Assembly (NCBI GenBank): GCA_947483545.1
Contig: CANKNP010000068.1
Span: 1-17,599 of the forward strand
Source: Deltaproteobacteria bacterium
Lineage (GTDB): Bacteria; Myxococcota; UBA796; SXON01
Reading direction: 5' to 3'
Length of the DNA: 17,599 nucleotides
Each line of letters starts with the position of its first letter. Position 1 is the first letter of the stretch. Shown here in pieces: positions 12,073-17,599 of the stretch. Both the position numbers and the translations under genes were made by a program. Below the pieces are notes generated by a model. It worked only from the letters and a program-made list of their open reading frames with translations, did not search any database and was not told the DNA's origin.

Positions 12073-13332
12073 CTAGCCCACGTTCTGGTAGACGCCCACG
12101 ACCGTCGTCCGGTCATCGCCGCCCATGTTCACGCTCATCCCGACGCCGGGGGCGCCAGGCACTTGGTAAGCGCCGGCCTTGCCCTTCATCTGGCGCCAGA
12201 TCTCGATTGGCTGCTTCACGCCGGTCGCGCCCACGGGATGCCCGAACCCGACAAGCCCGCCGCCCGTGTTGACGGGCGTTCGACCCCCAATGTCGGTCAC
12301 CCCTTCGCGGAGCAGCTGACCCGCCTGACCCGGCCCGCAAAGGCCCATCGCCTCGTACATCATCAGCTCGGTCACGGTGAAGCAGTCATGCACCTCTGCA
12401 ATGTTCAACGCCGCGGCGTTCTTCCCGGACTCCGCGTAGGCGGTGTGGATCGCGTGTGCAGAGGTGGAGAGCACAGTCGGATCGCTGTCCTCGTACAACG
12501 AGGCGGTCGAGTGCCCGGTGCCGATGATCTCGACGCATAGGCTCTGGCTTTTCCCGAGCTTGCGCAGCCCCTCCTCGCTCACCAGGAGCATCGCGCTCGC
12601 GCCGTCCGAGACCTGAGAGCAGTCGCTCATCTTGATGAACGGCGCGTACTCAGCGTTCTGCAGGAACGTGGGGTTCTTCTCGGAAGCCGCCGCGGCCGTG
12701 TCCAGGTCCATCTTGCGGGCGCGCATGTGTGCGAGCGGGTTTTTGTTGGCGTTCGCGTAAGCCTTCACTGCCGCGCGGCCGATGTCCTCTTCGGAGACGC
12801 CGAACGCCTCGCGGTAGGCCTTGGTCCGGCGCCCGAACAGCGCGGGGAAGGTGAATTCGTCGATGCCACGCTGGCGCGCGTAATGCGAGGCGCGAGCGAG
12901 GTAGTCGGCGCCCACCCGCGCGCTCTCCGTCGTCTGAACCTCGACCCCAGCGACCAGCACGACGTCGACGCCCGCCCGGATCGCGTCCACCGCGCAGAGC
13001 ATGGCAAGGCCGCCGGAAGCGCAGGCGCCCTCGGTCCGGGTCATGGGCTTCATCGCGAGCGCCGGATGGCTGCCCGCGAGCGCCGCGCCGAGATGGCCTT
13101 GCTTCGAGAACAGCTCCCCGACGAAGTTCCCGACGTACCCCCGCTGGATCAGCGTCGGATCTGCGCCTGTCTCGGCCAGGGCGAGATCCACGGCCTGCTT
13201 CAGCAACTGCTCGATCGTCGGGTTCTCCCGCTTGCCGAAGTCCGGGTGGTTCTTCCAGATGAAGTCTGGGCTCCCCTTGCCGACAAATGCGGTGTTGGCG
13301 CCACCGAGAAGGAATACGCGACGGGTAGACAT
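12073..13332 (-). CDS. SCP2-type thiolase (acetyl-CoA acetyltransferase family)
   Basis: 419 residues from ATG 13332, which has a GGAG site 6 bases upstream (13339-13342). Thiolase loops are present: nucleophile Cys104 in TEGACASGG, VHDCF (314-318) and GFGHPVGATG (362-371). The HDCF motif replaces the NEAF of classical thiolases, and no C-terminal CxG is seen (GMSVNMGGDD instead). This is the SCP2-thiolase pattern, in which the Cys of HDCF is thought to serve as the second catalytic cysteine. It probably cleaves or forms a 3-ketoacyl-CoA in the cytoplasm; direction and chain length are unknown. It heads the six-gene cluster, 77 bases downstream of the PpsA-Xfp fusion. Confidence 0.93.
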   Translation of the reverse strand: MSTRRVFLLGGANTAFVGKGSPDFIWKNHPDFGKRENPTIEQLLKQAVDLALAETGADPTLIQRGYVGNFVGELFSKQGHLGAALAGSHPALAMKPMTRTEGACASGGLAMLCAVDAIRAGVDVVLVAGVEVQTTESARVGADYLARASHYARQRGIDEFTFPALFGRRTKAYREAFGVSEEDIGRAAVKAYANANKNPLAHMRARKMDLDTAAAASEKNPTFLQNAEYAPFIKMSDCSQVSDGASAMLLVSEEGLRKLGKSQSLCVEIIGTGHSTASLYEDSDPTVLSTSAHAIHTAYAESGKNAAALNIAEVHDCFTVTELMMYEAMGLCGPGQAGQLLREGVTDIGGRTPVNTGGGLVGFGHPVGATGVKQPIEIWRQMKGKAGAYQVPGAPGVGMSVNMGGDDRTTVVGVYQNVG

Positions 13333-13409: not shown

Positions 13410-16400
13410 TCAACCTCCCCACCGCCAGTCGCGGATCGCCGGGATGTCGTCGCCGTGGGCCCGGATGTAGGCGTGGTGCTCGGCAAGTCGCTCGTCCATG
13501 ACCGCTCGCACATCCGCCGCGCTCACGCCCAGCGACGGCACCCGATCGATCACGTCCTGCACGAGGTGAAACCGGTCAAGGTCGTTGCGCACACACATGT
13601 CGAAGGGCGTGGTGGTGCTGCCCTCCTCTTTGTACCCCCGGACGTGAAGGTTGGGGTGGTTCCGGCGTCGGTACGCCAGCCTGTGGATCAGCCACGGATA
13701 GCCGTGGAACGCGAAGAGGATGGGCCGGTCCGTCGTGAAGATCGCGTCGAACGCAGGGTCCGAGAGCCCGTGCGGATGCTCGGACGCCGGCTGGAGCTTC
13801 ATCAGGTCTACGACGTTGACGAGCCGAACCTTCAGCTTCGGAAGGTGCTCCCGCAACAGTTCAACAGCGGCCAGGGCTTCGAGGGTGGGCACATCCCCGC
13901 AGCAGGCCACCACGACGTCTGGGTCAGCGCCCCCATCGTTGCTCGCGAACTGCCAAATTCCAACCCCCGCTTTGCAGTGGACGATGGCCTCGTCCATCGT
14001 CAACCATTGCGGTGCGGGCTGCTTTCCCGCGACGATCACGTTCACCACGTTCATGCTGCGCAGGCAGTGGTCGGTCACCGACAGGAGCGTGTTCGCATCG
14101 GGTGGGAGGTAGACCCGGATCACGCTCGCCTTCTTGTTGACGACGTGGTCGAGAAAGCCGGGATCCTGGTGGCTGAACCCGTTGTGATCCTGCCGCCATA
14201 CGTGCGACGTCAGGAGGTAGTTCAGCGAAGGGATCGGCCGCCGCCACGGGATCTCCCGGGTGACCTTCAGCCACTTCGCGTGCTGGTTGAGCATCGAGTC
14301 GATGATGTGGATGAAGGCTTCGTAGCACGAGAACATGCCGTGCCTGCCGGTGAGGAGGTAGCCCTCCAGCCAACCCTGACACTGGTGCTCCGACAACACC
14401 TCCATCACCCGGCCGTCCGGGGCGACATGGTCGTCGCCGGGGAGGATCTCGGCCGTCGATGCGCGACTTGTCACCTCAAACACCGCGTTCCACAGGTGCG
14501 CGACCAGCTCGGAGTCGCGGTCCACGCCGAGGATGAGCTGGGTGAGATCGTTGCTGCCGATCGAGAACCCGTCGAATACCTCGGCGAACTCCTCCGCGAG
14601 CTCCACGTTCGACGGGATCTCGCACATCACGTAGACCTCCAGCCCGTCCTCGCCCTGGACGAGCCCGTTCTTTGCCATTTCGGCGATCACCAACCGACCC
14701 TCCTCCGGTGTCCGGCAGAACGGCACCATGACCGTCACATTGGTGAGGCCCATCGTCTTGCGCACCCGCAGCATCGCGCGGCATTCCAACGCGAAGGCGT
14801 CGCGGTAGCGCGGATCGTAGTAGCGTGACGCCCCGCGGAAACCCAGCATCGGGTTCTCCTCGCGCGGCTCGTACGCCTCCCCGCCGAGCAGGTGTGCATA
14901 CTCATTGGTCTTGAAATCCGACAGTCGCACGATGACCGGCCGCGGAAAGAACGCGGCGGCGATGGTCCCAACGCCGTGCGCGAGCCGCTCGACGAACCAG
15001 TCGGGGCCGGGCTCAAAGCCCCTTGCGGCCTCCGCGATCTTCGCGCGAAGTGCAGGCTTCAGGGTCGGAAAGGCCAACAGCGCTTTGGGATGGACGCCGA
15101 TCCAGGTGCTGATGATGAACTCCAGCCGCGCCAACCCGACCCCGTCACTTGGGAGGCGGGACAGCCGCAGCGCTTCCGCTGGGTTGCCCACGTTCATCAT
15201 GATCTTCGTGCGCGGCCGCTTCATCTCACCAACGGGTGTACGCTCGACGTGGAACGGCACCGCCCCCTCCAAGACGCGGCCCTCGTCGCCCCCGTCGCAG
15301 GCCACCGTGATCACCTGACCGAGAATGAGCTTCGCCGTCGCTTCGCCCGCGCCGACCACCGCCGGGATCCCGAGCTCGCGGCTCACGATCGCCGCATGGC
15401 AGGTCCTGCCTCCGCGCCTTGTCACGATCGCGGACGCCTTCTTCATGATGGGCTCCCAATCGGGGTCGGTCCGATCGGCCACGAGCACCTCGCCATCCTG
15501 AAACTCGGCAAGGTGGTGTACGTCGGTGACCTCGCGCGCCGGGCCGCTCCCAATCCGATCGCCGACCGCGCGGCCGACCATCAGCACCTCGCCTTTTCCG
15601 TCCAGCACCCAACGCTCCAGCACGTCCGCGGAGCGTCGCGCCTGCACCGTCTCCGGCCGCGCCTGGACGATGAACAGCTCGCCTGTGCGGCCGTCCTTCG
15701 CCCACTCCATGTCCATCGGCGTGTGCACACCGCGCACTTCAGAGTAGTGATCCTCGATCACACACGCCCAGCGCGAGAGCGTGAGCACCTCGTCATCCGT
15801 CAAGACGAACCGCGCGCGCTCGGTCGGGGGCGTCGAGATCGTTCGCGTGCCCCGCGTTCCGCCCACCCGGTAGACCATCTTCAGCTCCTTCGAGCCGAGC
15901 GTCTTCTGAAGAATCGGCTCAAGCGCCCCCCCCTGGCTGTTCGACCGACGGAGCGTGGGCTTGAACACCACGAACTCGTCTGGGTTCACCGACCCCTGTA
16001 CCACGGTCTCCCCGAGCCCCCACGCCCCGGTGACGAGCACCACGTCGGAAAACCCCGTCTCGGTGTCGATCGAGAACATCACACCCGAACAAGCAAGGTC
16101 GGAGCGTACCATTCGCTGAACGCCGACGGAGAGCGCCACTGCGTCGTGTGCGAAGCCCTTGTCCACCCGGTACGAGATGGCGCGGTCGGTGTAGAGCGAC
16201 GCAATACACCGATGCACGGCGTCCAAAAGCGCTCTTTCGCCGCGTACATTCAGGAACGTCTCCTGCTGCCCCGCGAAGCTGGCGTCGGGCAGATCCTCCG
16301 CGGTCGCGGACGAACGGACCGCAACATCGGTGCCGCCTTCCACGCCCGCACTTAGCGCTTGGTAGGCATCCAACACGGCCCGCACCAAGTCTTCAGGCAG

Positions 16401-16679
16401 CGGCGCCGCGAGGATGGCATCGCGGACGGCCGCGCCGGTGCGAGCGAGCGCATCGGTGTCATTGATGTCGAGCCCGGCGAGTAGCGCGACGATGCGCTCC
16501 CGGAGCCCATCGCAAGCGAGGAACGCGCGAAACGCCTCCGCCGTCGTCGCGAACCCGTCCGGCACGCAAACGCCTCGCGGCACGAGCGTTCGCACCATTT
16601 CACCGAGCGAAGCATTCTTGCCGCCCACGCGTGGCACGTCGGCGAGGGTGAGGGCAGAGAAGGGGAGAACCAGTGTCAT
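13410..16679 (-). CDS. In-frame fusion: PEP synthase (N-terminal ~730 aa) joined to phosphoketolase C-terminal part (~359 aa)
   Basis: A 1089-residue uninterrupted frame from ATG 16679; an in-frame GTG at 16685 would add two residues, and MTLVLPF fits the PpsA start. Residues 1-340 are the PpsA ATP-grasp domain ([31 protein letters not shown]). The swivelling phosphohistidine domain follows, with His428 in [17 protein letters not shown]. The PEP/pyruvate barrel then runs through [14 protein letters not shown] and [22 protein letters not shown] (to about 729). Here PpsA should continue for ~70 residues holding the GICGQ catalytic Cys; they are missing. The chain becomes phosphoketolase instead: [58 protein letters not shown], ending DWRWGG. 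The ~430-residue N-terminal thiamine-diphosphate domain of Xfp is absent. As it stands neither known reaction is likely. It is a deletion-derived fusion (pseudogene-like) or an assembly chimera. Confidence 0.9.
14487..14492 (-). other. PpsA/phosphoketolase fusion joint
   Basis: Codons Trp (14490-14492) and Asn (14487-14489) mark the switch. Upstream sequence reads as PpsA up to ELVAHL; downstream sequence reads as phosphoketolase from NAVFEV. The Trp is not clearly assignable to either parent. No repeat, inserted element or change of base composition is visible at the joint. Confidence 0.8.
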
Positions 16680-16685
16680 GGGCAC

Positions 16686-17363
16686 TCAAAAATAGAAGGT
16701 GAGATTCTGGTCGCCGATTCCGACCAGGATGGTGCCCGATTCTGCGCCGTAGGTGTGCTGCCACGCCTTGCGGAGGGGGGCGAGATCGAAAGCGACCTCC
16801 TCGGAGATCCACGCATCGCACATGTCGTCGTTGGCGTCGTGCCAGACCTCCAAGCGGGCCTGCACCGGCTCGCTCTCTGCGAACGCGCCGTCCGGCCAAC
16901 ACAAGACCCATTCGTGCCGCTCGCAGCCGCCGCCCGCAGAGAGCTGGACCTGCAGCGCGTCGCCCTGGATCGAGGCCCCATCGACCTCGTACGCATCGCC
17001 CCGCTCGGCGCGACAGTTCGGCAGCCAAACGCCCTCGGGATAGTCCCACCCGCAGATCCCGGCGTCGCACGCGAAGCCGTAAGCCTCGGGGCAGTCGCAT
17101 ACGCTCTCCAGCCCAAGGTCACATCCGCCATCGGCGGCGTCGATAAGGTCGTAGATCTCCGTTGTGTCCGCGTCGATGCGAGCGACAAGATCCCGGGTGC
17201 AACCACAGCTGGTCCCCGTCAAAACCTGACCGCACTCCGGGTCGGTGGTGCAGGAGCGGGCCTCGGCGAGGGCGTCCGCGAAGGAGATCTGGATCTCCTC
17301 GCACGTTCCGAACGGCTCCGGCGCAACGTCGGGGATGCAAGCGGCGAGCAGCAGGGGGAACAT
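16686..17363 (-). CDS. Orphan Cys-rich lipoprotein preceding the fusion gene
   Basis: 225 residues from ATG 17363, chosen because it starts MFPLLLAAC, a minimal lipoprotein signal (LAAC, Cys9). The same frame stays open upstream to the window edge with further possible starts, so a longer product cannot be excluded. About fourteen cysteines occur in the mature part, including CGCTRDL and VCDCPEAYGFACDAGICGWDYP. The latter resembles the small disulfide-rich modules of secreted Myxococcota proteins that follow 'CxCP...C' patterns. The C-terminal half (beta-rich, LQVQLSAGGGCERHEWVLCW) is unrecognised. It is probably anchored in the outer membrane or the periplasmic face. The stop TGA lies 6 bases before the ATG of the fusion gene, so the two are co-transcribed; no functional link is evident. 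Confidence 0.75.
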   Translation of the reverse strand: MFPLLLAACIPDVAPEPFGTCEEIQISFADALAEARSCTTDPECGQVLTGTSCGCTRDLVARIDADTTEIYDLIDAADGGCDLGLESVCDCPEAYGFACDAGICGWDYPEGVWLPNCRAERGDAYEVDGASIQGDALQVQLSAGGGCERHEWVLCWPDGAFAESEPVQARLEVWHDANDDMCDAWISEEVAFDLAPLRKAWQHTYGAESGTILVGIGDQNLTFYF

Positions 17364-17599
17364 GCCCGAGGGACAAGCAAACGGCGTGCCAGGGGCGGGG
17401 GCGAGGTTGTGCCGCGCTCCGGGGGCGAACGGTCCCCCACGCGGCATCATCTTGAGCGCTCGCTCCGTCAGTTTGATGTCGCCGAGTTGGGCGGCCTTGG
17501 AGCCATCGCCGGGAGCGCACCACCGCCGTCCAACGGCCGTGGGCATCGCGACGCCCCCCGCCGCCGATCCGCGCGCTCGGCGAACCTCGCTCGCGGCTC
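17364..17599. other. Right edge, no confident gene
   Basis: These 236 bases run to the window end. On the minus strand the frame of the lipoprotein stays open to the edge with GC-rich third positions. It reads a basic/Pro-rich stretch including KAAQLGDIKLTERALKMMPRGG, which could be coding or simply open by high GC. I recognise no domain, promoter or RNA here. Confidence 0.3.

What the first reader, a model, noticed from the sequence alone, without database searches (positions are those of the whole stretch)
13410..16679. A single open frame joins truncated PEP synthase to truncated phosphoketolase
The first ~730 residues follow PpsA collinearly and stop ~70 residues short, losing the GICGQ catalytic-Cys segment and the end of the barrel. 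The next residue onward is phosphoketolase from just before its pyrimidine-type domain, losing ~430 residues that include the N-terminal thiamine-diphosphate domain. The joint is in frame and both halves keep clean motifs without stops. Both parents are central carbon enzymes (pyruvate to PEP; sugar phosphate to acetyl phosphate), so adjacent genes joined by a deletion of roughly 1.5 kb is the simplest biological model. If real and expressed, it would be an unusual two-enzyme chimera retaining the ATP-grasp and phosphohistidine domains of PpsA. If artefactual, it flags a misassembly in this contig.
Basis: partly seen in the sequence, partly recalled or inferred. Interest (0 to 1): 0.85.

Follow-up and report, generated by a model that had tools for sequence, protein, structure and literature searches.

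The report
Two truncated metabolic genes joined in frame
One reading frame joins the front of a PEP synthase gene to the back of a phosphoketolase gene; both enzymes lose essential catalytic parts, so this is most likely a recent deletion scar or an assembly error, not a new enzyme.

Summary
Window 13410-16679, minus strand, is one open frame of 1089 aa. Residues 1-729 are PEP synthase (PpsA) lacking its last 71 residues, with the Cys motif; residues 730-1089 are phosphoketolase (Xfp) lacking its first 424. Of 120 hits listed across the joint, only the window's own protein carries both parts. The closest PpsA relative and the second-closest Xfp relative, both full length, are each listed on one contig of 23,261 bases, so the two genes are very probably linked there; order, strand and distance could not be read. 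Neither half shows relaxed constraint (1 of 283 and 0 of 181 near-invariant sites changed): the joint is very young or an artefact, and an old repurposed chimera is unlikely. Both active sites are cut, so neither normal reaction is expected. The parents share only 1-2 bases at the joint (codon logic), which speaks against a repeat-collapse misassembly but not against a chimeric read. Reads and the rest of the genome were not available. Verdict: a correct observation; a probable recent deletion allele, or an artefact; low interest.

The parts
13410..16679 (-). fused open frame, 1089 aa, ATG at 16679, stop TGA at 13412-13410
14493..16679 (-). PpsA (phosphoenolpyruvate synthase) part, residues 1-729: ATP-grasp (PPDK_N), phosphohistidine domain with GGRTCHA at residue 423, incomplete PEP-binding barrel
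14490..14495 (-). junction, CTG|TGG: last PpsA-like codon Leu729, first Xfp-like codon Trp730
13410..14492 (-). Xfp (phosphoketolase) part, residues 730-1089: most of the XFP domain and the whole XFP_C domain
16686..17546 (-). upstream open frame, 286 aa, no Pfam or NCBIfam match; its stop lies 6 bases before the ppsA ATG
12073..13332 (-). downstream thiolase-family gene (419 aa from my choice of ATG), 77 bases after the fused frame's stop

Best explanation
A recent deletion of about 1.5 kb or more in an uncultured bacterium (probably Myxococcota, from names on two PpsA relatives) removed the 3' end of ppsA, the spacer and the 5' half of a nearby xfp, and happened to leave the remaining halves in frame. 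The product is most likely a dead or residual protein. It keeps the ATP-grasp and phosphohistidine domains, so at most it could still autophosphorylate. It is not expected to make PEP (no GICGQ cysteine, barrel not closed) or acetyl phosphate (no diphosphate-binding domain, 7 of 13 listed pocket residues lost). Shown: the anatomy, the losses, the lack of relaxed constraint. Inferred: linkage of the parent genes (from contig length), the deletion itself, its recency, the lack of function.
For: The best PpsA and second-best Xfp relatives are each on one contig of the same length, 23,261 bases, source ena (coincidence estimate). Both halves are similarly close to that pair (PpsA 91% over 723 aligned sites, Xfp 89% over 360). 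Codon-usage distance between the halves is 0.066; distances from either half to other window genes are 0.065-0.103. No relaxed constraint: 1 of 283 and 0 of 181 columns conserved at 97% deviate, against a median of 1 among 118 and 210 relatives; the single deviation sits at the edge of a short insertion. Window-only substitutions are 14 and 4, of which 1 and 0 at such columns. If neutral changes struck such sites at random, at most about 9 could have followed the joint. I saw no interrupted frame among the other Pfam-matched genes of the window (not compared with relatives one by one). By codon logic the parents share 1-2 bases at the joint, too few for a k-mer collapse.
Against: Only one sequence has the joint (one member, one contig, the window's own length). 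The contig-length match holds for 1 of the 4 nearest Xfp (P0003; not P0002, P0004, P0027), and the 39,844-base contig with PpsA P0123 matches no listed Xfp. Adjacency and orientation in the relative were not read. In two other phyla the genes are not neighbours: of 34 genomes with both, 18 have them on one contig, the nearest about 15 kb apart on opposite strands, and 16 have them on different contigs. A chimeric read would look the same.
Confidence: 0.6

Rival explanations
1. Assembly or library artefact: a chimeric read or local misassembly skipped about 1.5 kb between two intact nearby genes, so the organism has normal ppsA and xfp.
For: A unique record; both halves look fully constrained, as intact genes would; both genes are full length and on one contig length in a near relative; no genome is held for the window (the tool names several possible reasons, a metagenome record among them).
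Against: Almost no shared sequence at the joint by codon logic, so no repeat for an assembler to collapse; none of the listed repeats within the frame covers 14490-14495 (the removed DNA itself is not available); no interrupted frame seen among the other Pfam-matched genes.
Confidence: 0.36
2. A functional new chimera under selection, for example an ATP-dependent phosphohistidine module attached to half of Xfp, with a regulatory or structural role.
For: The frame is open, the phosphohistidine motif GGRTCHA is intact, the ATP-grasp domain is complete and near-invariant residues are kept in both halves.
Against: Among the 120 listed hits no other protein has both parts, though I would expect a similar fusion to outscore single halves (8000 candidates scored, 120 listed). 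Residues that serve only the lost reactions are kept too, which points to recency rather than a new role. Both active sites are incomplete. The structure model was too poor to judge either way (mean pLDDT 45).
Confidence: 0.04

Closest known systems
Phosphoenolpyruvate synthase PpsA (pyruvate, water dikinase; TIGR01418; solved example 2ols)
   Same: Collinear over residues 1-729, 90% identical to the nearest relative; 1017 bits against a cut-off of 740
   Different: Lacks the last 71 residues, with the GICGQ cysteine motif and the end of the PEP-binding barrel
Xylulose-5-phosphate/fructose-6-phosphate phosphoketolase Xfp (solved examples 3ahc, 8io8)
   Same: 360 C-terminal residues, 89% identical to the two nearest relatives, incl. 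the equivalents of Glu479, Tyr501, Gln546, His548, Asn549, His553
   Different: Lacks 424 N-terminal residues: PF09364 domain, GDGEAETG motif, and the equivalents of His64, His97, His142, Gly155, His320, Gln321, Ser440
P0029, a truncated Xfp followed in frame by a histidine-phosphatase domain (PF00300), 626 aa, contig of 245,575 bases
   Same: A partial Xfp joined in frame to another protein
   Different: Other partner, on the other side of Xfp; its first ~25 residues look like frame-shifted xfp (my reading, not tested)

Membership tests
Phosphoenolpyruvate synthase (PpsA) | ATP-grasp nucleotide-binding domain (PPDK_N) | tested here: met
   PF01326 18-353, 393 bits
Phosphoenolpyruvate synthase (PpsA) | Phosphohistidine domain with GGRTCHA motif | tested here: met
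   PF00391 395-466; GGRTCHA at 423
Phosphoenolpyruvate synthase (PpsA) | Complete PEP-binding barrel with the catalytic Cys (GICGQ; its catalytic role is recalled) | tested here: not met
   PF02896 ends at profile 227 of 293; no CGQ in the window protein, present in 118 of 118 relatives over 700 aa
Phosphoketolase (Xfp) | N-terminal ThDP diphosphate-binding domain (XFP_N) | tested here: not met
   No PF09364 match; GDGEAETG absent, present in 206 of 210 relatives over 700 aa
Phosphoketolase (Xfp) | Central XFP domain complete | tested here: not met
   PF03894 matched only from profile position 31 of 177; the stretch DE[TS]xSNR, found in 203 of 210 relatives, lies before the joint in P0002-P0004
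Phosphoketolase (Xfp) | C-terminal XFP_C domain | tested here: met
   PF09363 888-1089, profile 1-202 of 202
Phosphoketolase (Xfp) | Active-site residues (13 modelled for the Bifidobacterium enzyme) | tested here: not met
   6 of 13 retained, 7 lost; list from passages of PMC10547157, mapping
Deletion-made gene fusion | Parent genes adjacent and in the same orientation in relatives | tested here: inconclusive
Deletion-made gene fusion | Reads cross the joint at normal depth | not testable with these tools
   No reads available

The most novel reading that the evidence does not exclude
A newly born, expressed chimera in which PpsA's ATP-driven phosphohistidine module is tethered to half of phosphoketolase, caught before either half has begun to decay.
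Probability: 0.04. Interest if true: 0.5.

Novelty: new member of a known kind. Interest (0 to 1): 0.15.

Why it matters
If real, it is a fresh example of how an in-frame deletion joins neighbouring metabolic genes and removes two central-carbon enzymes at once; if artefactual, it flags a local error in this contig and in any protein record derived from it. In neither case does the evidence point to a new enzyme.

Tried and rejected
Old functional chimera: unlikely, because near-invariant sites of both halves are intact and no second fusion was among the 120 listed hits. Chimera of two different organisms: disfavoured by similar codon usage and by near relatives of both halves sharing a contig length. 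Repeat-mediated misassembly: disfavoured by 1-2 shared bases at the joint (codon logic); no listed repeat covers it.

Led nowhere: no genome is held for the window. Two phylum searches with P0121 (99 genomes each, nearly all shared; cut-off 1e-200, matches in 25 of 99 each) gave PpsA of at most 64%, so no close relative's DNA was reached. AlphaFold of the fusion failed (mean pLDDT 45, 24-row alignment; an earlier 56-row alignment had misaligned the Xfp rows); no fold search was run. Paper searches (one search found nothing) showed no PpsA-Xfp fusion in the listed titles and abstract starts; only passages of PMC10547157 were read. Rfam, tRNA and promoter/terminator scans were empty.

Full report
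What is there. The fused frame lies on the minus strand, 16679 to 13410, 1089 codons plus stop; the + strand of the interval has stops. Pfam and NCBIfam place a truncated PEP synthase first and a truncated phosphoketolase second, meeting at residues 726-734 (1091-aa numbering). Compared with close relatives, the PpsA part ends at ...DSELVAHL and the Xfp part begins at [10 protein letters not shown]; the joint is CTG|TGG at 14495-14490. Compared with P0121 and P0003, 71 PpsA and 424 Xfp residues are missing, i.e. at least 1,488 bases if the genes abut.

Uniqueness. A protein search with residues 620-880 scored 8000 candidates and listed 120; by their Pfam domains only the window's own protein (one member, one contig of 17,599 bases) carries both parts. 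I would expect a related fusion to outscore single halves on this query and so to be listed. In 150 genomes of one phylum (centre G006, titled Proteobacteria; at most 5 candidates scored in most genomes, weakest matches not listed) and 79 of another (centre a cyanobacterium; cut-off 1e-100), 0 of 229 showed a listed match covering most of both parts. By my count of the listed matches 7 and 27 genomes hold both genes. In 18 of these 34 both lie on one contig, the nearest pair about 15 kb apart on opposite strands (G322), the next 118 kb or more; in 16 they lie on different contigs, so adjacency there is not seen but not strictly excluded.

Linkage in a near relative. The top PpsA relative (P0121, 90%) and the second Xfp relative (P0003, 93% over the Xfp part of region 620-880) are both single-contig entries, source ena, with contig length 23,261. 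Comparing 119 PpsA lengths with 210 Xfp lengths, two are shared, 23,261 and 5,360; over all pairs about 0.8 coincidences were expected, but the chance for one given Xfp to have exactly 23,261 was about 6e-6. The 5,360 pair (P0189, P0010) comes from different sources and more distant proteins and is probably the chance coincidence. I infer that ppsA and xfp lie within 23 kb of each other in that relative, both full length (794 aa each). The other three nearest Xfp (P0002, P0004, P0027) and the PpsA on a 39,844-base contig (P0123) gave no such match. I could not fetch any of these contigs. Names on two members of the PpsA group (P0132 Deltaproteobacteria, P0134 Myxococcota) suggest a Myxococcota-type host.

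One genome or two. GC3 is 0.84 and 0.86 in the two halves and 0.82-0.90 in the 12 other genes measured; codon-usage distance between the halves is 0.066, at the low end of the distances to those genes, 0.065-0.103 (the halves were cut two codons from the joint). Nothing suggests two organisms.

Age. Against 118 PpsA and 210 Xfp relatives, the window deviates at 1 of 283 and 0 of 181 columns conserved at 97% or more, and at 0 of 243 and 0 of 150 at 99%; the median relative deviates at 1 and 0. The single deviation (residue 252) is at the edge of a short insertion. Window-only substitutions are 14 and 4, with 1 and 0 at such columns; the controls among near relatives have 2 to 33 substitutions, with 0 to 2 at such columns. 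Neutral change would strike such sites about 43% of the time, so at most about 9 neutral residue changes can have followed the joint. The joint is very young or not real; an old chimera would have lost residues that serve only the missing reactions.

Function. PpsA without the GICGQ cysteine and the end of the barrel should not make PEP (role of the cysteine recalled; the motif is in 118 of 118 relatives). Of 13 Xfp pocket residues used in a published model of the Bifidobacterium enzyme (passages of PMC10547157), 7 lie before the joint and are gone, 6 remain (mapping). The ATP-grasp and phosphohistidine domains are whole, so partial autophosphorylation is conceivable. The structure model was too poor to use.

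Deletion or artefact. By codon logic the parents share 1-2 bases at the joint: the first base of the Phe codon that follows Leu in PpsA, and the last base of the Arg codon before Trp in Xfp if it was G. This assumes that the lost parent codons were like those of the relatives, of which I saw proteins only. It is too little for a k-mer collapse, and no listed repeat within the frame covers the joint, though the removed DNA could not be examined. A true deletion by illegitimate recombination or a chimeric read remain, and only reads can decide. I put 0.60 on a real recent deletion, 0.36 on an artefact and 0.04 on a functional chimera; these are judgements, not computed.

Verdict. Interest is low.

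Noticed in passing
genomes G282, G324, G308, G332, G328: Five genomes of the cyanobacterial phylum carry PpsA interrupted near query residue 430, just after the phosphohistidine motif, by about 1.2 kb inside one frame of 1212-1230 aa; looks like an intein.
   Followed up: no
P0029: A 626-aa protein on a 245,575-base contig joins a truncated Xfp in frame to a histidine-phosphatase domain; its first residues look like frame-shifted xfp.
   Followed up: partly
G311:C1:1536002-1538131: A PpsA match (query 4-718) is reported in an open frame of 14,105 aa; possibly a run of N. Not examined.
   Followed up: no
window 15924-15950, minus strand (approximate): The window's PpsA has a short insertion (RRSNSQGGA, about residues 244-252) that P0121, P0122 and P0123 lack.
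   Followed up: no
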